A stretch of DNA of 9,608 bases, taken from Bacteroidota bacterium (GTDB lineage: Bacteria; Bacteroidota; Ignavibacteria; Ignavibacteriales; Melioribacteraceae). This document shows positions 1 through 9,608 of this stretch, piece by piece; position 1 is the stretch's first letter, and every line of letters begins with the position of its first letter. The stretch covers positions 1 through 9,608 of the forward strand of contig JAKAHQ010000033.1 of the NCBI GenBank assembly GCA_021814855.1, in the 5' to 3' direction. The notes below the pieces were generated by a model. That model did no database searches and was not told the origin of the DNA. It saw nothing but the letters and a program-made list of their open reading frames with translations. A program made the translations under genes and the position numbers.

Positions 1-33
1 AAAGAAGCTAAACGAAAACTGAACCAATTATGA
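1..33 (+). CDS. C-terminal tail of an upstream gene (partial, runs off the left edge)
   Basis: Frame 1 is open from the first base and reads ten codons (KEAKRKLNQL) before a TGA at 31-33. That stop overlaps the ATG of the next gene at 30-32 as ATGA, the kind of junction used for translational coupling. The same overlap style recurs at 4898-4901 and at 5297-5301, which supports this being a real gene end and the operon starting left of the window. The tail is basic and could be the end of a helix or coiled coil. The product cannot be identified from ten residues. Confidence 0.5.
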   Translation, partial: KEAKRKLNQL

Positions 34-1619
34 AAAAAATATTAGCGTTTTTTATTATAAGCTTTAGCTCGGTTTTATTCGCACAGAATGAGCAGCAGGG
101 AATTGAACTGCCAGATTTTGTAATCACGGGCAAACAAACAATTAATATTCCTACTGCAAAAAAACCAAAGCCGGAGTTTATTCCGACTCTCTCCCAGGCA
201 TTCTTCACGCCAACTTATAACCCGGAAGAACTGCCGCTTATGATTTCATCGGACCCTGTTTCCATTATCCCTTCCATCCAGCCGTATAGTGATTACTATA
301 ATTTTTCTCTCAAAGTACAAGCCGGAAGATATTCTTTTCCGACTGGAGAGTTTAACATTAATCAATCGCTGGATAGCTACCTCTTTAACGCAAAGGTCTG
401 GGGATCGAACATAAAGGATTATGTGCCTAACTCCGGCTTCAATACTTCCGGCGTTTCTATGACGCACGAATTTTTTATCAGTACGCGTTCGGGATTTCTG
501 CCGGGAACGGTTATTAAAATTTCCGGAGATTACTCAAGAGATTCTTACCGGTTGTTCGCTTCGCAGGACCCGTCATTCTTGCGGGAAACAAATAAAGGAA
601 GCGGTTTGCTTTCTATTTCGAGCAGACTGAACAGGTGGATAAATTACGGGGCAGCAGTAAAGGGAAACATATTAACCGCCGGCGAAAATAATTTTAAGGA
701 AGTACTTCTGAATCCTAACGCCTATTTCGACTTTAAATGGAATAATTTCATGTTCGGTTTCAAAGGAGATTATGAAAGACAAAGTCTCACTAATAATTTA
801 GGCGCAGATAATTCCTATAATTTTTATTCCGGCGAAGGTTATATTAAACTCATGCCCTCGGATAATTTCCGGTTTACCGCGGGCGCTTCTTATTCGGCCT
901 CTGGAAACAACTCGCTCTTAACACCGTTCGGTTCGGTAGAATTTAAATTGAACGACAATCTTACGCTCGATGCTGAATTTAAACCTCAAGCTAAGTTCTA
1001 TACCGTAAATGATCTCTTGAAGAAAAATATCTACTATAATTTCGGTGTAAACGATAACATATTCGAAAAATATGATAACAATATAACCGGTATGGTTCGT
1101 TACGAATACGATAAATATATAACCTTTGCTCTTTCCGGCGGCTATCAAAGTATAAAGAACTATCTCTACTTCGACGACTCGGCAAACCCGGGCAAGTTCG
1201 ATCTTAAGACATCGTCCGTCGCTAAAGTTTTGTTTTCTAAGCTGGATTTTTATTATTATACAAGTATCTACGGTTTCTTTATTGGAGAAATGACGTACAA
1301 AGACACGAGAAACGATTCGGATAATAAAATTCCTTACGAGCCGTTGCTTTCATCAAGTTTAACTTACGGCTACGATTTTGATTTTCATCTCGGTTTACGA
1401 GCGAGCTATCATATAGCTATGAATTCGTACACGGATCTAGCCAACACGAATAAACTGGAAGATTATCACAATCTTTCTTTCGCCTTAGATTACGAATTGT
1501 TAACCGGATTAAAATTAACGGCGGACTTTCAAAACATCTTGAATAGAAGTAATTTTGTTTGGAGACAGTATCAGGAAAAACCATTTGATATTCTTGCAGG
1601 AATTGAATACAGATGGTAA
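30..1619 (+). CDS. Outer-membrane beta-barrel protein, TonB-receptor-like but without a plug domain
   Basis: 529 residues. A signal peptide is visible (MKK, hydrophobic core, probable cleavage after A18 in VLFA-QN). The mature N-terminus carries IELPDFVITGK (residues 25-35), which resembles the TonB-box or plug-start motif (LPxVVVTG) of TonB-dependent receptors. A Pro/Lys-rich stretch follows. From about residue 90 to the end the protein alternates aromatic and polar residues in strand-sized blocks separated by Asn/Asp/Gly turns, and it ends in EYRW. An aromatic last residue is the usual signal for insertion by the Bam complex. Only about 55 residues separate the box-like motif from the first strands, too few for the normal plug of over 100 residues. 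It starts inside the preceding stop codon (ATGA) and is followed after 25 bases by the SPOR protein gene. The location is confident; the substrate and transport role are unknown. Confidence 0.8.
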   Translation: MKKILAFFIISFSSVLFAQNEQQGIELPDFVITGKQTINIPTAKKPKPEFIPTLSQAFFTPTYNPEELPLMISSDPVSIIPSIQPYSDYYNFSLKVQAGRYSFPTGEFNINQSLDSYLFNAKVWGSNIKDYVPNSGFNTSGVSMTHEFFISTRSGFLPGTVIKISGDYSRDSYRLFASQDPSFLRETNKGSGLLSISSRLNRWINYGAAVKGNILTAGENNFKEVLLNPNAYFDFKWNNFMFGFKGDYERQSLTNNLGADNSYNFYSGEGYIKLMPSDNFRFTAGASYSASGNNSLLTPFGSVEFKLNDNLTLDAEFKPQAKFYTVNDLLKKNIYYNFGVNDNIFEKYDNNITGMVRYEYDKYITFALSGGYQSIKNYLYFDDSANPGKFDLKTSSVAKVLFSKLDFYYYTSIYGFFIGEMTYKDTRNDSDNKIPYEPLLSSSLTYGYDFDFHLGLRASYHIAMNSYTDLANTNKLEDYHNLSFALDYELLTGLKLTADFQNILNRSNFVWRQYQEKPFDILAGIEYRW

Positions 1620-1644: not shown

Positions 1645-4224
1645 ATGAATTTAAAAGACCTTCAAATAAAAATAGCCGATGTACTTGGTGTATCGTCTTC
1701 TCAAAAGGAATTGGCCTACGAGACTTTCATAGAAAAGGTATTGGAAAGTCTTCACGAAGGTCTGACTTTAAAAGTGCCCCGTATTGGATTTTTCCAATTG
1801 AAACCGTCCGACCAACAGGATAGCAGCGGACGCACAATAATATTTTCCAACCTGTTTGAAGATTTTGATCGAGATTCCAGAAATTTGTATTTAACGCTTG
1901 ATGTGACTCCAAAATCAAAAGGTAAAACCGAACTTGATGCAAACGTATTCAGCATAGGCGTTGGAAAACCTTTGCTGCCTCTCGCGGATGAAGAAATGCC
2001 CGATTCGGAAACTTCTTACGCGATGTTGAAGAAGTCTATTGATGAAAGAGCAAAAGAACTAATTATTGAGTCGGATCAAATTCCAAACTTCGATTTGTTT
2101 GACGGTTATTATAGTGAGAATAACGAATCGGCGGGCGAAGGAAACAAAATAAAAGACACGCTTTCAACTCTTACTTCTGAAATAAAAGATGAAAATGTTA
2201 AGGAAGTTGAAAATCCGGCAGAAGTTCCGGCGAATGATGAAACACCGGATGTGGAAATTCATGAAAGCGAGGAATATTACAATGCTGCCGATACCGTAAG
2301 CGCGGAGGTTAATCCTGATATTGCCGATGAAACTTTCGACAAGACCGATAGAGAGAATGAGGCAGAATTACCGCACGAGGAAATCAATAATGAAAAACCC
2401 GAAATTACAGAACCGCTTCAGGAAATTTCGCTTGCCGAATTGCTCGGCGAAACAATTTCCGGCACGGATGATAATATTTCCCATGAGGTAAATGAGCCGG
2501 ATCATCAAGAAGAACAACCGTCATTAAGTATAAATGAATTTTTAGCTCAAGATATTCCTGAAGCGGAAGAAATGCCAGGCGAGCAATCATTTGAAGAATC
2601 ACCGGAACCTTTAGAAGCAACCGGAACTGTAAATATCGAAACCTTTCTGAATCAGGAAGAGCAAGAGCCGGTTGCCGAAAATTTGGAGGAACAGTTTGAA
2701 TCTCAATTATCGAATGAACTAAGCGAGGATTCAATTATTGATGAAAATATCAATACCGATTTGATAGCCGGCCAGGATGTTGAGGATACCGGCGAGAAAA
2801 CGGAAGATGTTTCTGAGTTACATGTTGATAAGCGGACAGATGAAGTTCCGGACGAAAATCACGAAGCAGAAGAAGACCTTGTTTTAGAGGAAGACAAAAA
2901 AGTTGATCTTAAAAAAGATCTGTTTGCCGAGCTCGATGCTAATATAGAGGATTTTAAAACAATAGAAGAAAATGAAAGCGAGAGTTCGAATTTGAATCTC
3001 CCGGTTGACGAGACTACCGGGGATATTACCGAAGATATTGCTGATGAAGAAGATTTATGGCTTAAAGAAGATGAAACTACTGGTGAAAAGGTTGAGTGGA
3101 ATTGGGGAGATGAATTAAAAGAGGAGTTTGGAATAAACCGCTTTGAAGGCGAAGAAGCAAAGTATGAGATGGTGGATGATAAGGAGTTGGAGAATAAAGA
3201 CGATTCGATTTCCAGCAATAAATTGTATAAAGATCTTTTTGCGCAGCTCGAGAAAGCGATTGAAAAAGAGAAAACCATTTTCGAAGACGACATAAAAAAT
3301 GACGATTGGAAAGTCGATAAAGAAGAAGAATCCCAACCGAAATTTCCTACAAAAGAAGAAAGGCCTGTAAATAAATTTTCCATCAAGGATGATGAAAAAG
3401 TATATTTGGAATTTTCCAACCCTCCGACTAAATATGAATTTGTTGCCGCCAAAACTCCGGAACAAAACAAACGAATGTCGATCGTTCTTGAGGAAGAGCC
3501 GAGGAGGCGTACATATTCGAGGGAAAATTTGCCGCCGGCGCCTTCAAAACCGGAAAAAGATAATTATTTCGGAAAGATATTCATTCTGATTTTTTCGGCC
3601 TTCATAGTTATCTCAGCTTCCATCTATTTTCTTCTAAGGAACAACAGTCAGCAGAAAACCTCGATAGCTAATAATGCCGTTGCGCAAAAGCCGCAATCGG
3701 AACAATCAGTTGTCGATTCTATCATTCAAGCCAATGTTAGAAAATCCAATGTCGATTCAACAAGGATCGGGCTGGACGATTTTGATAATTTTCCCACAAC
3801 GGCAAAACCGCCTGTCCCTATAAAATCCGGCGGCAGTGATGAATCTTTAACTGCAAAAACCGGCATTAATAATGCGGTATCAACAAAGACAAATTCGGAA
3901 TTAACTGCCAAAAAAGAAAGTCCCGTTAAATCCTCTGCCGCGGAAAAAAGCGACGACAATTCGATGTACCGGACTCTAACCGCCGATACTCGTGTAAATA
4001 AAACTATTTACTTCGACGGAACAAAATATAATTTTCAAACTTCATCGTGGCGGAATAGAGACAAAGCAGAACAGGAAGCCAAGCGTTTAAGACGGCTGGG
4101 ATTTAAGGCGTTTATTGTTAGCGCGTATCTTCCCCAAAAGGGAGGCACATGGTACCGGGTCCGGATAGGTTCTTTCAACTCTCAAAATGAAGCCCAGGAT
4201 TTCATGAATAAAAATAAATTTTAA
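1645..4224 (+). CDS. Inner-membrane protein: HU-like domain, acidic linker, one TM helix, C-terminal SPOR domain
   Basis: 859 residues. Residues 1-88 resemble the HU/IHF fold: a helix pair (MNLKDLQIKIADVLGV, ETFIEKVLESLHEGL) followed by the beta-hairpin VPRIGFFQLK, matching the HU LVGFGTFEV region. The basic DNA-clasping arm and its intercalating proline are not recognisable. Residues about 115-635 are very rich in Glu/Asp and look disordered, with repeated short motifs. A single membrane helix spans about 645-664. Arg/Lys precede it, so the N-terminus should be cytoplasmic and the C-terminus periplasmic. A Ser/Lys/Thr-rich spacer leads to a SPOR domain at 788-859 (FQTSSWRNRDKAEQEAKRL, then WYRVRIGSF). 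SPOR domains bind peptidoglycan stripped of stem peptides, typically at division sites. HU-CCDC81-like plus SPOR proteins are known in Bacteroidota. Its position directly before exbB suggests it is the wall anchor of the same complex; this is inference. Confidence 0.85.
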   Translation: MNLKDLQIKIADVLGVSSSQKELAYETFIEKVLESLHEGLTLKVPRIGFFQLKPSDQQDSSGRTIIFSNLFEDFDRDSRNLYLTLDVTPKSKGKTELDANVFSIGVGKPLLPLADEEMPDSETSYAMLKKSIDERAKELIIESDQIPNFDLFDGYYSENNESAGEGNKIKDTLSTLTSEIKDENVKEVENPAEVPANDETPDVEIHESEEYYNAADTVSAEVNPDIADETFDKTDRENEAELPHEEINNEKPEITEPLQEISLAELLGETISGTDDNISHEVNEPDHQEEQPSLSINEFLAQDIPEAEEMPGEQSFEESPEPLEATGTVNIETFLNQEEQEPVAENLEEQFESQLSNELSEDSIIDENINTDLIAGQDVEDTGEKTEDVSELHVDKRTDEVPDENHEAEEDLVLEEDKKVDLKKDLFAELDANIEDFKTIEENESESSNLNLPVDETTGDITEDIADEEDLWLKEDETTGEKVEWNWGDELKEEFGINRFEGEEAKYEMVDDKELENKDDSISSNKLYKDLFAQLEKAIEKEKTIFEDDIKNDDWKVDKEEESQPKFPTKEERPVNKFSIKDDEKVYLEFSNPPTKYEFVAAKTPEQNKRMSIVLEEEPRRRTYSRENLPPAPSKPEKDNYFGKIFILIFSAFIVISASIYFLLRNNSQQKTSIANNAVAQKPQSEQSVVDSIIQANVRKSNVDSTRIGLDDFDNFPTTAKPPVPIKSGGSDESLTAKTGINNAVSTKTNSELTAKKESPVKSSAAEKSDDNSMYRTLTADTRVNKTIYFDGTKYNFQTSSWRNRDKAEQEAKRLRRLGFKAFIVSAYLPQKGGTWYRVRIGSFNSQNEAQDFMNKNKF

Positions 4225-4241: not shown

Positions 4242-4901
4242 ATGAAATGGTTGGAATTATTTTTAAACCCCTCAATTGAGATTTGGATTCTAATCCTTAG
4301 TTTAATTTGGATTATTGCAATTGCCTTAAGAAAAATCAAAATGATTAATGAGGCAAAATCCGCTATACCTTCATTCGCAATTAAAATTAGAGCACTGCTG
4401 AAAAAGAATAATTTTAATGCCGCTTTGGAATTTTGCATGGAAGATAAATCGGCAATTTCTAATATTGTAAGAAGGGGATTGAAAAAGCACAAGTTTGGTA
4501 AAGCCAGGTTTGAAGAAGAACTCGATGCCTCCGGTCAATCGGAAGTAGTTAAGCTGGAAGAAAATATGGGCGCTCTGGCTGCTGTCTCCGCCGCCTCTCC
4601 GCTGGTAGGATTTTTAGGAACTGTATTAAGTATTGGCTCGCTGTTTAGGATGCTGGAAAATCCGCAGAACAATGCTACGTTCGGAGATTTTTCTGATGCA
4701 ATCTGGAATGCATTAGTCTCCTCCGGACTCGGCATTTTTGTGGGAATTGTTGCTGTCATTGTATATAATTATCTCGTAAATAAAATTTCGAAAGCAGTAA
4801 TCGATATGGAGAGAATTGCGTCGGAGATATTCGATCTCATAGAAATTCCTGAAAACGAAAGCGGCCCCGATGAATTTGAGAAGGAGAATGCCAAAGAATG
4901 A
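4242..4901 (+). CDS. exbB: MotA/TolQ/ExbB-family inner-membrane channel subunit, with variant TM3
   Basis: 219 residues, close to TolQ (230) and ExbB (244). TM1 lies near residues 12-29, TM2 near 110-135 and TM3 near 150-178. The cytoplasmic region leads into the family signature ASPLVGFLGTVLSI (T127 matches E. coli ExbB Thr148), and TM3 ends in GIFVGIVAVIVYN, aligning with GLVAAIPAVVIYN. ExbB subunits form a pentamer around an ExbD dimer and use the proton gradient to move TonB. In the ungapped TM3 alignment, E. coli Glu176 falls on N156 and Thr181 on S161, so the usual acidic residue is missing. The start is an ATG 17 bases after the preceding stop, with no clear Shine-Dalgarno site. The gene overlaps exbD by ATGA. 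It could equally be called tolQ-like; the adjacent tonB favours ExbB. Confidence 0.85.
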   Translation: MKWLELFLNPSIEIWILILSLIWIIAIALRKIKMINEAKSAIPSFAIKIRALLKKNNFNAALEFCMEDKSAISNIVRRGLKKHKFGKARFEEELDASGQSEVVKLEENMGALAAVSAASPLVGFLGTVLSIGSLFRMLENPQNNATFGDFSDAIWNALVSSGLGIFVGIVAVIVYNYLVNKISKAVIDMERIASEIFDLIEIPENESGPDEFEKENAKE

Positions 4902-5299
4902 AGCCGGGCATTCGACATAAATCAATTGAAACATTTCATTTCACTTTGGCGTTAAATGTGATAATGATACTCCTTGTTTTCGTGATTGTAATATTTGCAT
5001 CATTGCATAGATACGGTGTGAGAATAAAATACACCGAAACGAATATGAATACAGCAACGGCGGGCAATGAAACAATTGTCTTAAATGTAGATACAGATAA
5101 AATGCAGCTGGCAGGCCGAACGATTTCTCTTGCCGATTTGCCTGCTGAGTTAAAACGATTAAAGAAGAGTAAGAACCTGGATTTTATTATTCAGCCGACC
5201 GCTTCTGCCAAAATAAATTTTGTTCGGAATATAATTAGTTCGCTTAAGAATAATGGAATAAATAACGTAACATTGCAAACGGATTTAGCGTCATTCTAA
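4898..5299 (+). CDS. exbD: ExbD/TolR-family inner-membrane subunit lacking the conserved membrane aspartate
   Basis: 133 residues, typical of ExbD/TolR: a short cytoplasmic N-terminus, one membrane helix (about 15-35) and a periplasmic domain with the family pattern (IVLNVDTDKMQLAGRTISL, ELKRLKKSKNLDFIIQP, IISSLKNNGINNVTLQT). In E. coli ExbD the helix begins TPFIDVMLVLL, where Asp25 is essential for proton coupling. Here the equivalent reads TLALNVIMILL, so the aspartate is N20 (codon AAT at 4955-4957) and the preceding proline is also lost. E11 and H14 just upstream are the nearest ionisable residues. The start ATG sits in an ATGA overlap with exbB, and an AAGGAG lies at 4881-4886. The stop shares one base with the tonB start. 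The family call is strong; whether the subunit couples protons is doubtful. Confidence 0.85.
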   Translation: MKPGIRHKSIETFHFTLALNVIMILLVFVIVIFASLHRYGVRIKYTETNMNTATAGNETIVLNVDTDKMQLAGRTISLADLPAELKRLKKSKNLDFIIQPTASAKINFVRNIISSLKNNGINNVTLQTDLASF

Positions 5300-5994
5300 T
5301 GTCATTTAAAGGTCCCAAATATATTTCGTATTTATTTTCAATTTCTATTCACGCAATTTTTATAATTCTGCTTGTTCTCACAAACTTATCTCCAGGCACG
5401 CCGGAAGAAGAATATGTTTTGGTTGGTTACGGACCAGGATTCGGTTCGGGAGGCAAAGGCGGGAGCGGGCAGACGGATCAATCGGATAAAAATTCGCCGG
5501 TAGCAGAAACACCTCCAGAAAAAAAGGAGAAGGATAAAAAAGTTGAGCTGCCGAAAGCAGAGCCTGTAAAAGACGATGACCAAATTGCAAGTTCGGATAA
5601 GAATAAAAAAGAAAATAACTCCGACAGCAAGTTGAAGCCGCTGCTCAAAGGCAACACAAAGGGAGACGGTTTTGGATATGGCGGAGAAGGCACGGGCGGA
5701 GGTGGCGGTTTCGGTTTTGAACTTGATTTCGGAGGAAACGGCAAAAGAAGAATTTACAGTTATAGTTTGCCTGAGTACCCCGAAGGTGTATCTAAAGAAA
5801 TCGATTTACGACTACGCTTTACAATTTTACCGGACGGAACCGTTAGTAGAATAGTTCCGTTAATTAAAGCCGACGCGCAATTGGAAATGGCCGCGATAAA
5901 CTCTTTGCGTCAATGGCGCTTCGAGCCGCTTCCGCAAAATGCAAAACAAATGGAACAGACCGTTGTAATTACTTTTCCGTATCGCCTTCAGTAA
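5299..5994 (+). CDS. tonB: TonB energy-transducer protein
   Basis: 231 residues. An N-terminal membrane anchor (about 10-30) contains S14-I-S-I-H18, matching the SxxxH signature of E. coli TonB (Ser16/His20) that is needed to work with ExbB/ExbD. The spacer crossing the periplasm is unusual: two Gly-rich blocks (about 43-58 and 121-148) flank a Lys/Asp/Glu-rich segment, where E. coli has Pro-Glu/Pro-Lys repeats. The C-terminal TonB domain (about 153-231) shows LPEYP, LRFTILPDGTVSRIVPL and SLRQWRFEP, all standard family landmarks. This domain binds TonB boxes of outer-membrane proteins. Its ATG overlaps the exbD stop as TAATG, implying translational coupling. The last 26 bases overlap the convergent gene on the other strand. 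The barrel at 30-1619 with its box-like N-terminus is a candidate partner. Confidence 0.88.
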   Translation: MSFKGPKYISYLFSISIHAIFIILLVLTNLSPGTPEEEYVLVGYGPGFGSGGKGGSGQTDQSDKNSPVAETPPEKKEKDKKVELPKAEPVKDDDQIASSDKNKKENNSDSKLKPLLKGNTKGDGFGYGGEGTGGGGGFGFELDFGGNGKRRIYSYSLPEYPEGVSKEIDLRLRFTILPDGTVSRIVPLIKADAQLEMAAINSLRQWRFEPLPQNAKQMEQTVVITFPYRLQ

Positions 5995-6280
5995 TATCCT
6001 GCGGCGTTTCTTTTTCTCCGTAATAAAACCTGTAAAAAAAGAATTCCACTATCGATAAAAGAGTGAGGGAAATTGTATCCCCGTCGAATTGAATTCCGAA
6101 TCCTTTACTGTCGATAAATAATTTAACTACCGCGGTGGCAATCGACCAGCCAACGGCAAACAAGATTATTATCAACGCAAAATTGATGAAAGCCGATGAG
6201 AGCGATTCATCCTGCCATTTCTTTGTGAAAATGATCAGTATAAAAAATAGGTGCGCAGAAAAAATTAAAGCGGAAATCAT
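5969..6280 (-). CDS. Small membrane protein of unknown function
   Basis: 103 residues, not recognised. Hydrophobic segments at about 2-18, 31-55 and 70-86 suggest three membrane helices. These are followed by a charged hydrophilic tail (GEKETPQDITEGDTEK). There is no signal peptide, lipobox or known catalytic motif. The start ATG at 6280-6278 has AGAAGG (6296-6291) ten bases upstream, a plausible ribosome site. It is the last gene of the minus-strand run, 31 bases after the Cys-Cys membrane protein, and its 3' end overlaps the tonB 3' end by 26 bases tail to tail. The length, membrane pattern and ribosome site support a real gene, but it has no functional clue. Confidence 0.65.
   Translation of the reverse strand: MISALIFSAHLFFILIIFTKKWQDESLSSAFINFALIIILFAVGWSIATAVVKLFIDSKGFGIQFDGDTISLTLLSIVEFFFYRFYYGEKETPQDITEGDTEK
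5983..6015 (+). terminator. Probable intrinsic terminator of the exbB-exbD-tonB operon
   Basis: CGCC (5983-5986) pairs with GGCG (6003-6006) and CAG (5989-5991) with CTG (5999-6001), separated by a small internal mismatch and enclosing a 7-base loop. The hairpin is followed directly by TTTCTTTTT. It straddles the tonB stop codon and lies inside the 3' coding part of the convergent gene. The stem is short and interrupted, so it is weaker than the one at 8173-8198. The minus-strand side has no T tract. Confidence 0.45.
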
Positions 6281-6311
6281 TTTTGATAAACCTTCTGCAT
6301 ATTAAATTTTT

Positions 6312-6815
6312 TTAAACGTTGCCGGTTCTGCTGTTTATTATTTTCGATCCGACCAATCCGCCGACAATACCGAATACGATATTAACAAGAAAATTATTAA
6401 CGACCACGGAAAGCGTATAAAACCAGGAGAATCCGTAGGTAAGTATATCGCTTCTTACTTTTTGGAATAATGATATTACCTCGTTCTTAATATCTTCCGT
6501 AACCGGAAATCCTTGAATCATTCTTTGAAGTTCAGGGAAAGCGGCTATTACATCGTTCTGCTTTGTAACAAAAGTAATAAACAATTCAAACACGGTTCCA
6601 AACAAAGCCGCATAAAAGCCGGTTATTAAACCGATCATTAATGCTTTCTTGGCGGAGATAAAGCCAAAGGAGTTGGTCGCTCTTTGATCGAGCAGGAGCG
6701 CAAGAAACGCTGCAAGAGGCATTATCATACAACATGAAAAACTTTTAACGAATGGCACAATCTGTAAAACCCCTGCACCAAAACCGCAGACTAATGAAGG
6801 CAGATATTTTTTCAC
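6312..6815 (-). CDS. Multi-pass membrane protein with a Cys-Cys motif, function unknown
   Basis: 167 residues. Membrane segments are likely at about 5-22, 27-42, 57-82 and 130-157, with a soluble loop of roughly 45 residues (about 85-128) between the last two. A vicinal cysteine pair (SFSCCMIMPLAA, C27-C28) sits in the first hydrophobic region, and glycines are frequent (CGFGAGVLQ near the N-terminus, FGIVGGLVG near the C-terminus). The start is GTG at 6815-6813, forming a GTGA overlap with the stop of the DUF2085 gene; no better start exists before the first helix. It loosely resembles small conserved membrane families such as DUF4199, but I cannot assign it. Stop-start overlap with a Cys-containing DUF2085 protein suggests that the two are made together and may act together. 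Confidence 0.7.
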   Translation of the reverse strand: MKKYLPSLVCGFGAGVLQIVPFVKSFSCCMIMPLAAFLALLLDQRATNSFGFISAKKALMIGLITGFYAALFGTVFELFITFVTKQNDVIAAFPELQRMIQGFPVTEDIKNEVISLFQKVRSDILTYGFSWFYTLSVVVNNFLVNIVFGIVGGLVGSKIINSRTGNV

Positions 6816-7273
6816 ACTCGGTTGCTCTTTAATTCGGCAAATAGTTGATTCAACGCGCTGTAAAGATATAAAAATCCGGTCGAACCCAAAAGAATTCCCG
6901 TTGAAAAAGCTATAGTCTTTGAATAGTGATATATATTTAATGTGTGGAATATTACATCTGCGGCCAATGGAATGCTCGCATAAAAAAGATACTTTATTTT
7001 ATGAATAGATTTCAGTTCGATGAAAAGAGACGCGAAACTACAAATAAGCAGACCAATATAAATTCCGGAACACCTTGCGCATACCAGCGTTTCGTAGTGA
7101 TCAGATTTGATTAGCCGTTCTGGAAGCTGATGACAAACAAGCGAATAAGATTTTTCTAGAAATGGAATCGCTAATACTAAGGTTTGATTTATTGGAATAA
7201 GCCACTCGGAAAATATTCCTGCACACCAAATTAGAATTGCAAGGAAGATTAAAATCCGAAATGATCTATTCAT
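6812..7273 (-). CDS. DUF2085 family membrane protein
   Basis: 153 residues from the chosen start. It shows the hallmark DUF2085 pattern: a CHQLPER motif at C47-H48-Q49, then VCARCSGIYIG with C65 and C68, a later helix with D106 (PLAADVIFH), and a Gly-bearing helix (FSTGILLG, about 123-130). There are four or five membrane segments. The biochemical role of the family is not established; the Cys/His set suggests a metal site or redox-active site at the membrane. The frame is open up to an ATG at 7351, but that would overlap the upstream coding sequence by 76 bases. The ATG at 7273-7271 starts two bases after the upstream stop and directly before the first hydrophobic helix, so it is preferred. 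The 3' end overlaps the next gene as GTGA. Confidence 0.85.
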   Translation of the reverse strand: MNRSFRILIFLAILIWCAGIFSEWLIPINQTLVLAIPFLEKSYSLVCHQLPERLIKSDHYETLVCARCSGIYIGLLICSFASLFIELKSIHKIKYLFYASIPLAADVIFHTLNIYHYSKTIAFSTGILLGSTGFLYLYSALNQLFAELKSNRV

Positions 7274-7275
7274 GA

Positions 7276-8142
7276 TTATTTTTGCAGAACTATCTTGTAA
7301 ACTAAGATTGTCTCTTTTGTCAATATAAAGAGTTCCGAATTCATTGCACATGCATCCATAATGTCAGCGTCGATCTTAGGAGTAAGAACTATAGGGTTAA
7401 GCGTTCCGTTTTCCAAATCCGTATTTGAAAATACAGCCACCTGTTTTTTATCATTAACGGATATTAATTGTAAGAATGAGTTAATGTTTGTTGGTATGAA
7501 AGGTAATGAGAATTTCCTGATTCCGTTGCCGAATTGATCGAACTCTACAACCGAAGGCGGATCAACCGCAAGCAGTTTAATGCTGCTCGTAATAGCAAAA
7601 CTTACAGGGTTCGAAAGCGAGTACAATCCGGCATCAAAACCGCCGATGGTTGTTTGGAATTCTCCGCGTAGATTAAATTTTAGAATTCTCTTGTTATCGG
7701 AATCCAAAATAAAAAAGTCTCCCTGATTGGATACGGCGGAACAAGTAGGGTAATTAAACACGTAGCGGGAATCGGTTGAATTTTGAGTCGATAGTTGAGA
7801 AAGAAAATTTAAATCTTTATCGAAATATTGAATCCTATTATTATTCTTATCGGAAACATAAACATTCAACGAAGTGGCAAAAACATCTACCGGATCATCG
7901 AACGCCGAAGACTGCCATCCGTAACCGCCAATAAATTTAATTACGTTTCCGAGCGTATCAAGTTTTATCAATTCGTTTGAGGTTGTGTCTGTTACAAAAA
8001 CAAATCCGGCTGAAGTGAATGAAAAAGACTTTGCCCCTTTAAAAGAACCGAGTTGTTTTTCGAAGATCAAGGATTGTGCAGAGCACATGAAGGAATTAAA
8101 TAATATCCCGGCGATCAATATGTTAATAATTCTTTTCGACAT
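7276..8142 (-). CDS. Secreted NHL-repeat-like beta-propeller protein
   Basis: 288 residues. A signal peptide is clear (MSKRIINILIAGILFNSF, probable cleavage after CSA at residue 22). The cysteine at 20 does not form a good lipobox, so it is probably periplasmic or exported rather than lipidated. The body has recurring blade-like units of NHL type: DPVDVFATSLNVYVSDKNNN-RIQYFD (83-108), YPTCSAV...FFILDSDNKRILKF (131-156) and NPVSFAI...LLAVDPPSVVEFD (178-202). Less regular blades occur at 39-66 and 228-285. At 288 residues it fits one six-bladed propeller. Such domains bind proteins or glycans and need no catalytic residues; the partner is unknown. It lies just below the lipoprotein terminator and is followed after two bases by the DUF2085 gene. 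Confidence 0.75.
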   Translation of the reverse strand: MSKRIINILIAGILFNSFMCSAQSLIFEKQLGSFKGAKSFSFTSAGFVFVTDTTSNELIKLDTLGNVIKFIGGYGWQSSAFDDPVDVFATSLNVYVSDKNNNRIQYFDKDLNFLSQLSTQNSTDSRYVFNYPTCSAVSNQGDFFILDSDNKRILKFNLRGEFQTTIGGFDAGLYSLSNPVSFAITSSIKLLAVDPPSVVEFDQFGNGIRKFSLPFIPTNINSFLQLISVNDKKQVAVFSNTDLENGTLNPIVLTPKIDADIMDACAMNSELFILTKETILVYKIVLQK

Positions 8143-8215: not shown

Positions 8216-9608
8216 TTATCGGGATGTTCCGAAAATTGTATAGGAAAATGTTCCTCTAGGACCGGAGACAGTAATTATTAATGTCGAATTTTTCAATTCA
8301 TCAGTTTTAGGGTCGCTGTCTCCAATTGTAACTTTGAAATCAGTAATATTCGCTCCGCCGGTTAATGCATCTGGAATTGAATAGGATGTCGGGCTGGCAG
8401 TTAATGTGCCTCCCTGGGCATTAAACGAAATCGAATTATCGGAAGAGATCGGATTGCCGTTGACATCCGTGATGGAAAACGTAAAGGTTTGGCTTCCGCC
8501 GTTGTCTAATGCAAATGAAGTCGGATTTAAATTCGATAGCACAGGGTCGCCCGAAAGTAAACGAATAGTATAAGTCGAAATTGTGTCGGCGGTTTCAGTT
8601 ATAGTTTTTGCAGTAACTTTAAAGAAGCCCGGGCCCCAATACGGACTGGAGCCATCGTTAGGTAAATTGGGATTTCCGAATGTTGCTAATGTGGATTTCG
8701 CTCTTCCCAAATCGTCTGTGTATACAAATCTTCCAATCACCCCACTGGTTGTACTAAAATAAACGGCTGTGTTTTCTCTTACGGGATTCGAATATTTATC
8801 TCCCAACAACGCAACAAAAGATATTTCTTTATTCAGCACACCAAGATACGGGTAATTTAATTTATCGCTGGCAACCGCAAACCTTTCCTGAACCGGGAAT
8901 CCGCTGTAGATTGTAAACGGAATAGGTTTGGATTGAATTACCTTATTCTTCCAAGTAAACTTAGCGATTAATTGAATTACTCCCGCCTTTGTACCGCTGT
9001 TTAGTGTTACGGAAACTTTTCCGTCCGCATTGGTTTTATCATGTGTTGGAAAAAGATATTCTCCTCCGCCGGCAGTGCCGCCGAATTCAAATGAAACATC
9101 AACCGCACTATCCGAATTAATCGGGTAGCCGCTTGAATCTTTTACCTGGAAGATAAATGTTGCCGATTCAACCGCTCCCGTTTCTTTTACTCCAACACTG
9201 TTTGCACTTTGCGAAAACAGATCAATTGAAGCGGGGCTTCCCGAAGTTGCCGGAATTACAGATGAAGCCTTTAACCTAATTGTCGGAACATTTATGGTCT
9301 GATCGATAACGGCAAAAACATGGATTGTATCTGGGATATATCCTTCTTTGAAAGCTATCAAATTGAGATCGCCGCCTTTACTTAGAGTAAGGGCAAGATT
9401 AAATTTGCCGTCGCTGTCGGTTAAGACGCCCTGAGTTGTTGTATCAATTGCGACGTGGATAACAGCGCCTTCAATTGCATCGCCGCTGGAATTATCCACT
9501 ACTTGACCGTTAAATGTTACTTTACCTGAACCGCCCATCGGATTGGTTATATTGTTCTCGTTCTTTTTAAATGAACAACTGGCAAAGAGTGAAACAATCA
9601 ATAAAAAT
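8216..9608 (-). CDS. Surface or periplasmic lipoprotein with carboxypeptidase-regulatory-like and Ig-like domains (5' partial)
   Basis: At least 461 residues; the start lies beyond the right edge, because the frame stays open through the last base and a TTG at 9601 lies within the signal-peptide core. The visible start (FLLIVSLFASC, Cys codon at 9577-9575) is a type II signal peptide with a lipobox, so the mature protein is lipid-anchored at that Cys. Numbered from the TTG codon, residues about 26-112 form a carboxypeptidase-regulatory-like domain (VTFNGQVVD, AIEGAVIHV, TDSDGKFNLAL, FKEGYIPDTI). Residues about 121-233, 234-349 and 350-461 are Ig-like modules of the invasin (Big_1) sort, with recurrent phrases DSSGYPINSD, DKYSNPVREN and DVNGNPISSD and an ADGKVSVTLNSG motif. 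Such proteins act as adhesins or scaffolds. It ends at a TAA followed by a strong terminator, so it may be the last gene of its own transcript. Confidence 0.8.
   Translation of the reverse strand, partial: FLLIVSLFASCSFKKNENNITNPMGGSGKVTFNGQVVDNSSGDAIEGAVIHVAIDTTTQGVLTDSDGKFNLALTLSKGGDLNLIAFKEGYIPDTIHVFAVIDQTINVPTIRLKASSVIPATSGSPASIDLFSQSANSVGVKETGAVESATFIFQVKDSSGYPINSDSAVDVSFEFGGTAGGGEYLFPTHDKTNADGKVSVTLNSGTKAGVIQLIAKFTWKNKVIQSKPIPFTIYSGFPVQERFAVASDKLNYPYLGVLNKEISFVALLGDKYSNPVRENTAVYFSTTSGVIGRFVYTDDLGRAKSTLATFGNPNLPNDGSSPYWGPGFFKVTAKTITETADTISTYTIRLLSGDPVLSNLNPTSFALDNGGSQTFTFSITDVNGNPISSDNSISFNAQGGTLTASPTSYSIPDALTGGANITDFKVTIGDSDPKTDELKNSTLIITVSGPRGTFSYTIFGTSR

What the first reader, a model, noticed from the sequence alone, without database searches (positions are those of the whole stretch)
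4898..5299. ExbD with asparagine in place of the essential membrane aspartate
The helix reads TLALNVIMILL where E. coli ExbD reads TPFIDVMLVLL, placing N20 (AAT, 4955-4957) at Asp25. That aspartate is nearly invariant in ExbD/TolR and its D-to-N mutation abolishes activity in E. coli, yet this gene is otherwise intact with a normal periplasmic domain. The subunit may not move protons, or may use other residues such as E11 or H14.
Basis: partly seen in the sequence, partly recalled or inferred. Interest (0 to 1): 0.72.

Follow-up and report, generated by a model that had tools for sequence, protein, structure and literature searches.

The report
Ton motor without its proton path
A bacterial motor that normally uses proton flow to work on the outer membrane has here, in a group of related bacteria, lost amino acids thought to carry the protons while its parts are kept, which suggests that it has become a passive anchor.

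Summary
Confirmed: ExbD residue 20 (AAT, 4955-4957) is Asn where E. coli ExbD has Asp25. It is not an error or a lone mutation: 26 of 26 distinct clade ExbDs have Asn, one of 15 of 133 columns unchanged in 9 representatives. Of 121 orthologous loci plus the window, 110 are canonical, 7 degenerate, none mixed, 5 partly unreadable. A tree of neighbouring genes needs four changes of state, best read as four losses. The other three are an ExbD-TonB fusion without Asp (3 genomes), ExbD gone with TonB kept (1), and ExbD and TonB both gone from the locus with ExbB kept (1). In the six degenerate genomes searched, the other 19 ExbD matches keep Asp. Most likely this is a proton-inert ExbB platform that anchors TonB, and perhaps an FtsN-like SPOR protein, as an envelope tether. 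Loss of proton coupling is well supported by sequence, the tether is inferred, and nothing was measured. E11 or H14 as substitutes is not supported.

The parts
4898..5299 (+). ExbD-family subunit (PF02472), Asn20 at the position of E. coli Asp25; one membrane helix (15-38 in the model) and an ExbD-type periplasmic domain
4955..4957 (+). codon AAT, Asn20, in place of the proton-carrying Asp
   Evidence: alignments; Asn in 26 of 26 distinct clade proteins
4242..4901 (+). ExbB/TolQ-family subunit (PF01618, 77 bits), overlapping exbD by 4 bases (ATGA)
   Evidence: model matches TolQ/ExbB chains of the PDB
4620..4622 (+). ExbB Thr127 (E. coli T148), the channel threonine that is kept
4707..4709 (+). 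ExbB Asn156 in place of the conserved Glu (E. coli E176); Q, Y, N, Y, N, Q in the six other clade members
4722..4724 (+). ExbB Ser161 in place of the channel Thr (E. coli T181); S in five and A in one of the six other clade members
5299..5994 (+). TonB-family protein (PF03544, 35.6 bits against 24.6) with membrane-helix His18 and an intact C-terminal domain
1645..4224 (+). Protein with a weak HU-like N-terminus (below cut-off), long acidic linker, membrane helix and C-terminal SPOR domain; FtsN-like, below the FtsN cut-off
   Evidence: SPOR 47.6 bits, PF00216 17.1 of 22.4 bits; TIGR02223 30.9 of 107.65 bits; syntenic
30..1619 (+). 529-aa secreted protein, probably an outer-membrane barrel (inferred), with a Ton-box-like IELPDFVITGKQ after the signal peptide
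   Evidence: motif (I/V)ELP(D/E)F(V/I)I(T/L/I)G in 24 of 24 printed rows that show the N-terminus, 3 further printed rows lack that end, and not all loci were printed; no Pfam or NCBIfam match
5969..8142 (-). convergent neighbours kept in synteny: 103-aa membrane protein, DUF4199, DUF2085, NHL-repeat protein
   Evidence: the first three used with ORF529 for the tree

Best explanation
In this clade (Ignavibacteriota by its relatives) the ExbB-ExbD motor of the locus ORF529 - HU/SPOR - exbB - exbD - tonB has lost coupling to the proton gradient but is kept as a platform. Shown: the proton-carrying Asp of ExbD is a fixed Asn, and ExbB lost the second channel Thr and the TM3 Glu, while orthologues elsewhere keep them. 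Shown: at this locus Asp and that Thr were lost together in every degenerate case, with four changes of state on the tree, and the other ExbDs in the same genomes stayed canonical. Inferred: with no ionisable group in the pore the complex neither conducts nor turns; Asn imitates the protonated Asp and holds the ExbD helix in the ExbB ring by hydrogen bonds to Thr127 and Ser161. Inferred: the ring anchors TonB, whose C-terminal domain reaches an outer-membrane partner (probably ORF529 through its Ton-box-like N-terminus), and perhaps the FtsN-like SPOR protein, giving a passive link between inner membrane, wall and outer membrane.
For: (1) Census: of 121 orthologous loci plus the window, 110 have T148/E176/T181 and Asp, 7 have lost Asp and T181, none is mixed; 3 lack a readable ExbD and 2 end before TM3 (table [[110,0],[0,7]]). 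(2) Neighbour-gene tree, 53 rows: window and G031 are sisters (100/100); starred branches force 4 changes of state. (3) Window, G031 and five metagenomic ExbBs form one clade (100/98), all seven without the Glu and T181. (4) Asn in 26 of 26 distinct clade ExbDs; in an ExbD tree of 32 rows the 12 Asn rows used form one group (98/98). (5) Locus-specific: the other 19 of 20 PF02472 matches in six degenerate genomes have Asp. (6) G068-G070 carry an ExbD(1-31 or 1-34)-TonB fusion with S, S, A at the Asp position: ExbD N-terminal profile 16.5-21.3 bits for the first 40 residues, TonB N-terminal profile at most 1.6, best of 900 shuffles 7.1. G096 lacks exbD but keeps tonB. G032 lacks both at the locus but keeps exbB. 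(7) ExbB of G068 against G070 has dN/dS 0.078. (8) Of 8 proteins compared, ExbB and ExbD stand out in rate: window to G031 1.51 and 3.33 against 0.21 and 0.28 for the canonical pair L001-L004, while TonB is 0.49 against 0.43 and ORF529 0.62 against 0.72. (9) Literature passages: D25/T148/T181 named as the proton residues (PMC12965293, PMC12905483); ExbD(D25N) inactive (PMC11658791); E. coli TolQ contacts FtsN in a two-hybrid test and its overexpression phenotype needs neither TolR nor TolA (PMC3831626, abstract and passages).
Against: No conduction or function was measured. Thr to Ser is conservative, and T148 is kept in the window clade. G032 and G096 keep the Glu. The seven loci stand for about four events, so the table overstates independence; reading the four changes as losses assumes the canonical state is ancestral. 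The ExbD tree joins long branches (window 2.45) and warns about it. Most of the 26 ExbDs are close relatives (about 9 lineages), and they were found with a profile of two Asn proteins, which limits what could be found. Selection on the Asn-ExbD itself could not be measured; its rate is very high, which also fits partial decay. ExbB of G068/G070 (0.078) and the fusion (0.140) are less constrained than canonical ExbB (0.032-0.053) and TonB (0.060-0.092). Without the first 8 residues, the ExbD profile score of the G069 fusion (6.2) is within the shuffle range. Binding of TonB to ORF529, or of ExbB to the SPOR protein, rests on synteny and motifs. An E. coli study that argued against a proton path through ExbB threonines is recalled and was not read.
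Confidence: 0.6

Rival explanations
1. Powered in trans: the Asn-ExbD or its TonB works with Asp-bearing paralogues (mixed ExbD dimers, or TonB docking on another ExbB ring), so the local ExbBD is a passive or regulatory partner.
For: G031 encodes two other ExbB-ExbD systems with Asp, Glu and both Thr, and the other degenerate genomes keep Asp-bearing ExbDs. Window TonB keeps helix His18. TolQR partly replaces ExbBD in E. coli (PMC10907165, passage).
Against: It does not explain why ExbB of the locus lost T181 and the Glu in step, nor the fusion in G068-G070, which lacks TonB's own helix and the ExbD periplasmic domain. The ExbB paralogues listed are about 21-31% identical to the window ExbB.
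Confidence: 0.17
2. Decaying motor: the genes are losing function, and Asn, Ser and the losses elsewhere are stages of erosion.
For: Strong acceleration of ExbB and ExbD; loss of exbD or tonB in other lineages; Glu replaced by several residues.
Against: Open reading frames in 26 distinct ExbDs; Asn invariant in 9 representatives while 118 of 133 columns vary; ExbB of G068/G070 has dN/dS 0.078 and the fusion 0.140; TonB of the window evolves at the normal rate.
Confidence: 0.15
3. Still a proton or other ion motor by a different route (E11, H14, a water wire, or an unrecognised site).
For: T148 and a hydroxyl at 181 remain in the window, and the operon is complete.
Against: E11 and H14 are in the window alone among 9 representatives; no acidic residue is conserved in ExbB TM2 or TM3 of the clade.
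Confidence: 0.07
4. Sequencing error or isolated mutation.
For: None found.
Against: Same protein on 5 contigs; Asn in 26 distinct proteins; matched changes in ExbB.
Confidence: 0.01

Closest known systems
ExbB-ExbD-TonB motor of E. coli
   Same: Same three families and same ExbB, ExbD and periplasmic folds; TonB with helix His
   Different: Asp25, T181 and E176 replaced; encoded next to a SPOR protein and a secreted protein with a Ton-box-like motif; T148 kept
Canonical orthologous locus of Melioribacteraceae and other Ignavibacteriales (L001, L008, L011, L012)
   Same: Same locus with the same neighbours
   Different: Those keep Asp, Thr, Glu, Thr; canonical ExbB and ExbD evolve slowly
Tol-Pal (TolQ-TolR-TolA) with FtsN
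   Same: The window ExbB scores higher with TolQ (72.9 bits) than with ExbB (41) in NCBIfam, and a SPOR protein is encoded beside it; E. coli TolQ contacts FtsN (PMC3831626, abstract and passages)
   Different: Below the TolQ and FtsN cut-offs; no Pal or TolB match among the ten window proteins scanned with Pfam
vWA proteins with a pore-entering helix beside TolQ and without TolR/ExbD (PMC12204202, passages)
   Same: A periplasmic domain carried on an ExbD-like helix, as in the G068-G070 fusion
   Different: Those keep the proton-binding Asp; the fusions here have S, S, A
Laboratory mutants ExbD D25N and MotB D22N
   Same: Same Asp to Asn change; described as inactive (PMC11658791, passage) and as protonation-mimetic (PMC9389320, passage)
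   Different: Here it is natural, fixed in a clade, and matched by changes in ExbB

Membership tests
ExbD/TolR (PF02472) | Profile match over the curated cut-off | tested here: met
   45.1 bits against 25.4
ExbD/TolR (PF02472) | One membrane helix followed by the ExbD periplasmic fold | tested here: met
   (model mean pLDDT 72)
ExbD/TolR (PF02472) | Aspartate in the membrane helix | tested here: not met
   Asn20
ExbB/TolQ/MotA (PF01618) | Profile match and fold | tested here: met
   77 bits; TolQ and ExbB chains top the PDB search
ExbB/TolQ/MotA (PF01618) | Both channel threonines (T148, T181) | tested here: not met
   T127 kept, S161
ExbB/TolQ/MotA (PF01618) | Conserved TM3 glutamate (E176) | tested here: not met
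   N156
Proton-driven Ton motor | Proton conduction coupled to TonB | not testable with these tools
   needs biochemistry
TonB | TonB C-terminal domain | tested here: met
   PF03544 35.6 bits against 24.6
TonB | SHLS motor-docking motif in the membrane helix | tested here: inconclusive
   S14, H18, L25 and N29 at the recalled spacing; G031 has S29; the motif is named in PMC10907165 and PMC12905483 (passages), the spacing is recalled
FtsN (TIGR02223) | Equivalog cut-off | tested here: not met
   30.9 of 107.65 bits; the SPOR domain alone is over its cut-off
TonB-dependent transporter (for ORF529) | Plug and barrel family match | tested here: not met
   no Pfam or NCBIfam match; only a Ton-box-like motif

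The most novel reading that the evidence does not exclude
A rotary-motor ring turned tether: at one envelope locus in Ignavibacteriota the ExbB ring is kept for a motor-independent job (holding a TonB-type arm and probably an FtsN-like SPOR protein), so the proton path was lost about four times: once by a fixed Asp to Asn swap, once with an ExbD-helix/TonB fusion, and twice by dropping ExbD. If so, ExbB/TolQ rings have a selectable function without ExbD, TonB or proton flow.
Probability: 0.42. Interest if true: 0.8.

Novelty: new variant of a known kind. Interest (0 to 1): 0.7.

Why it matters
How proton flow through Asp25, T148 and T181 is turned into force in Ton and Tol motors is open. This locus is a natural mutation series of these residues: four changes of state, with intact relatives and intact paralogues in the same genomes. 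It makes testable whether the ExbB/TolQ ring has a job of its own, and it is comparative evidence that Asp and T181 are lost together. I saw no description of naturally Asp-free ExbDs or of an ExbD-TonB fusion in the listings and passages of my ten paper searches (open-licence PMC papers only). I did not survey PF02472 beyond this order.

Tried and rejected
Sequencing error or lone mutation: rejected. E11 or H14 as proton carriers: rejected, not conserved. New acidic residue in ExbB TM2/TM3: none conserved; the clade has R or K at ExbB 136 where four canonical loci have M136, followed by K or R at 137 in three, which looks like a charge moved by one residue and was not pursued. Fusion helix derived from TonB: rejected in favour of ExbD, although MAFFT first aligned it with TonB and the helix part alone is above the shuffles for two of three fusions only. 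The first genome-contig scan, with the single ExbB, found nothing; the alignment scan worked. The ExbD search with the window protein alone returned only itself; the two-row profile reached 29 more proteins. dN/dS between window and G031 was not attempted, because at 26-42% identity it would be saturated. A structure of the ExbB-ExbD complex was not possible with single-chain prediction. Not covered: 43 of the 164 genomes of the order had no orthologue found at the threshold (41 without a match, 2 with a paralogue only); the states of their locus are unknown. Rows dropped before counts: L006, L136 and L235 (ExbD unreadable: contig ends; masked bases in L235) and L112 and L205 (contig ends before TM3) are outside the table; P0033 (fragment) and P0035-P0037 (Asp-bearing, named as other phyla) are outside the 27 clade rows. 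The tree used 53 of the 122 loci, those with enough neighbours, with G096 as root. The ExbD tree used 12 of the 26 distinct Asn proteins.

Full report
Observation. The ORF at 4898-5299 (+) encodes 133 residues and matches the ExbD/TolR family (PF02472, 45.1 bits against a cut-off of 25.4). Residue 20 is Asn, codon AAT at 4955-4957. A profile of the ExbD alignment, compared with solved structures, puts it on residue D25 of ExbD (6tyi, 7ajq). The predicted structure has one helix (15-38) and a periplasmic domain that matches solved ExbD domains (8p9r_A, rank 2, TM-score 0.85 of the target; mean pLDDT 72).

The partner changed too. The ORF in front (4242-4901) is an ExbB/TolQ protein (PF01618, 77 bits) whose model matches TolQ and ExbB chains. 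In the alignment with E. coli ExbB (5sv0), T127 falls on T148, residue 156 on E176 and residue 161 on T181. Thr127 is kept, but the window has Asn156 and Ser161. D25, T148 and T181 are called the proton-transport residues of this family (PMC12965293 and PMC12905483; as a speculation in PMC6677748; passages seen). ExbD(D25N) is described as inactive (PMC11658791, passage). That E176 is also needed in E. coli is recalled, not from a call.

It is a clade, not an accident. No whole genome is held for the window. A protein search gave five further ExbBs, 47-66% identical in the alignment, one of them a fragment of 154 aa, with Y, N, Y, N, Q at the Glu position and S (four) or A (one) at the Thr position. 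A scan of public genomes gave 12 related loci, several titled Melioribacter or Ignavibacterium. The family and the order were then searched. One genome of the family, G031, has the same state: ExbD Asn, ExbB Gln and Ser. Window, G031 and the five metagenomic ExbBs form one group in the ExbB tree (100/98). A profile of the two ExbDs found 24 full-length Asn-bearing ExbDs of one kind (one of them G031's own) and one more, P0034, from a 7184-base contig, the same length as the contig of ExbB P0007. In all, 27 of 27 clade rows, 26 distinct proteins, have Asn. In an ExbD tree of 32 rows, the 12 Asn rows used form one group (98/98), with a warning about long branches (window 2.45). In 9 divergent representatives 15 of 133 columns are invariant, and Asn20 is one of them. 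Many of the 26 are close relatives, so the number of lineages is nearer nine, and a profile of two Asn proteins limits what could be found.

Census of the locus. I read the residues at 121 orthologous loci and the window: 110 have T148, E176, T181 and Asp; 3 have the three ExbB residues but no readable ExbD; 2 end before TM3; 7 are degenerate: window, G031, G032, G068, G069, G070, G096. Among readable loci the table of T181 against Asp is 110, 0, 0, 7. The Glu was lost in 5 of the 7 (G032 and G096 keep it), and T148 was lost only in G032. A Fisher test of that table ignores descent. Another 43 of the 164 genomes of the order gave no orthologue at the threshold used, so their state is unknown.

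Other degenerate forms. In G068-G070 the gene after exbB is a fusion: the first 31-34 residues fit the ExbD N-terminal profile (16.5-21.3 bits for the first 40 residues) and not the TonB one (at most 1.6), with 7.1 as the best of 900 shuffles, and the rest fits TonB (106-109 bits). Without the first 8 residues the scores are 10.6, 9.8 and, for G069, 6.2, which is within the shuffle range. The fusions have S, S and A at the Asp position, and neither an ExbD periplasmic domain nor TonB's own helix. In G096, exbD is absent and tonB (232 aa) follows exbB after 142 bases. In G032, exbD and tonB are both absent from the locus, and exbB lies beside the convergent neighbour gene. No PF02472 match lies at the locus in these five genomes. 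A tree of four neighbour proteins (53 rows, G096 as root) places window with G031 (100/100), and starred branches force four changes of state; four losses is the simplest reading if the canonical state is ancestral. The order search held no other locus of the window type at its score (353 bits for G031, next 286).

The loss is confined to this locus. In the six degenerate genomes 19 of 20 PF02472 matches have Asp in the helix; the only Asn is that of G031 at this locus. G031 has two other ExbB-ExbD systems with Asp, Glu and both Thr.

Rates and selection. On a fixed topology the window-G031 distance is 1.51 for ExbB and 3.33 for ExbD, while a canonical pair of like divergence (L001-L004) has 0.21 and 0.28. 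TonB (0.49 against 0.43) and ORF529 (0.62 against 0.72) are not accelerated. By identity, the ten canonical pairs with ORF529 at 57-61% have ExbB 85-92% and ExbD 80-93%; window-G031 has 42% and 26%. So constraint on the two motor subunits was released. It was not abolished in the sister case: ExbB of G068 against G070 has dN/dS 0.078 (canonical pairs 0.032-0.053) and the fusion 0.140 (canonical TonB 0.060-0.092). For the Asn-ExbD itself this could not be measured.

Setting. The operon begins with a 529-aa secreted protein without a family match. It carries IELPDFVITGKQ after the signal peptide, kept with small changes in 24 of 24 printed rows with a complete N-terminus; it resembles a Ton box (recalled). 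Next is an 859-aa protein with a weak HU-like start, a membrane helix and a SPOR domain (FtsN model 30.9 of 107.65 bits). The window ExbB scores higher with TolQ than with ExbB in NCBIfam (72.9 and 41 bits, both below cut-off). E. coli TolQ contacts the periplasmic part of FtsN in a two-hybrid test, and its overexpression phenotype needs neither TolR nor TolA (PMC3831626, abstract and passages). ExbB is reported to form stable oligomers without ExbD (PMC6778125, passage).

Mechanism. The best reading is a proton-inert ExbB platform. With Asn for Asp the helix carries no ionisable group in the pore; the Asn can act as the protonated Asp does, as described for MotB D22N (PMC9389320, passage), and keep the helix seated against Thr127 and Ser161. 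TonB stays anchored and reaches the outer membrane, probably ORF529. Because ExbB survives in G032 without ExbD and TonB at the locus, the ring may have a use of its own; the SPOR protein encoded beside it is the best candidate partner. The residue states, their joint loss and the locus-specificity are shown; inertness follows from knowledge of the family; the tether and its partners are inferred.

Rivals. Powering in trans by paralogues is possible for the window clade but does not explain the joint ExbB changes or the fusion. Decay without function fits the rates but not the invariant Asn or the purifying selection in the sister case. A new proton route through E11 or H14 is unlikely, because neither is conserved.

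Known or new. Each part belongs to a known family; residues that define the working motor were tested and not met, so I do not file it as a proton-driven Ton motor. It is a new variant of a known kind. Asp-bearing helix carriers beside TolQ without TolR are in print (PMC12204202, passages). My ten paper searches, limited to open-licence PMC papers and seen mostly as listings, showed no description of natural Asp-free ExbDs with matching ExbB changes.

Noticed in passing
window 30-1619: Secreted 529-aa protein without a Pfam or NCBIfam match but with a well-kept Ton-box-like IELPDFVITGKQ after the signal peptide and an aromatic C-terminus (EYRW); probably a plug-less outer-membrane barrel that docks TonB.
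   Followed up: partly
window 1645-4224: Protein joining a weak HU-like N-terminus, a very long acidic linker, a membrane helix and a SPOR domain; could link the cytoplasm to septal peptidoglycan.
   Followed up: partly
L100 2481-3062, L106 2586-3167, L098 2240-2818: Natural fusion of the ExbD N-terminal helix with a TonB C-terminal domain, GTG start overlapping the exbB stop by 4 bases.
   Followed up: yes
L203 1307-1448 and L045 2019-2048: Places where exbD (L203), or exbD and tonB (L045), are missing between exbB and the next gene while exbB stays open.
   Followed up: yes
window 4647-4652 (ExbB residues 136-137): All seven clade ExbBs have R or K at 136 where four canonical loci have Met, followed by Lys or Arg at 137 in three of the four; a charge moved by one residue near the end of TM2, meaning unknown.
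   Followed up: partly
window 5969-8142, minus strand: Convergent cluster of a 103-aa membrane protein, DUF4199, DUF2085 and an NHL-repeat protein kept in synteny in many of the loci read; the NHL protein might be a TolB-like propeller.
   Followed up: no
window 8216-9601, minus strand: Protein with Big_1/invasin-type Ig-like repeats and a carboxypeptidase-regulatory-like domain, probably a surface protein; no link to the finding was seen.
   Followed up: no
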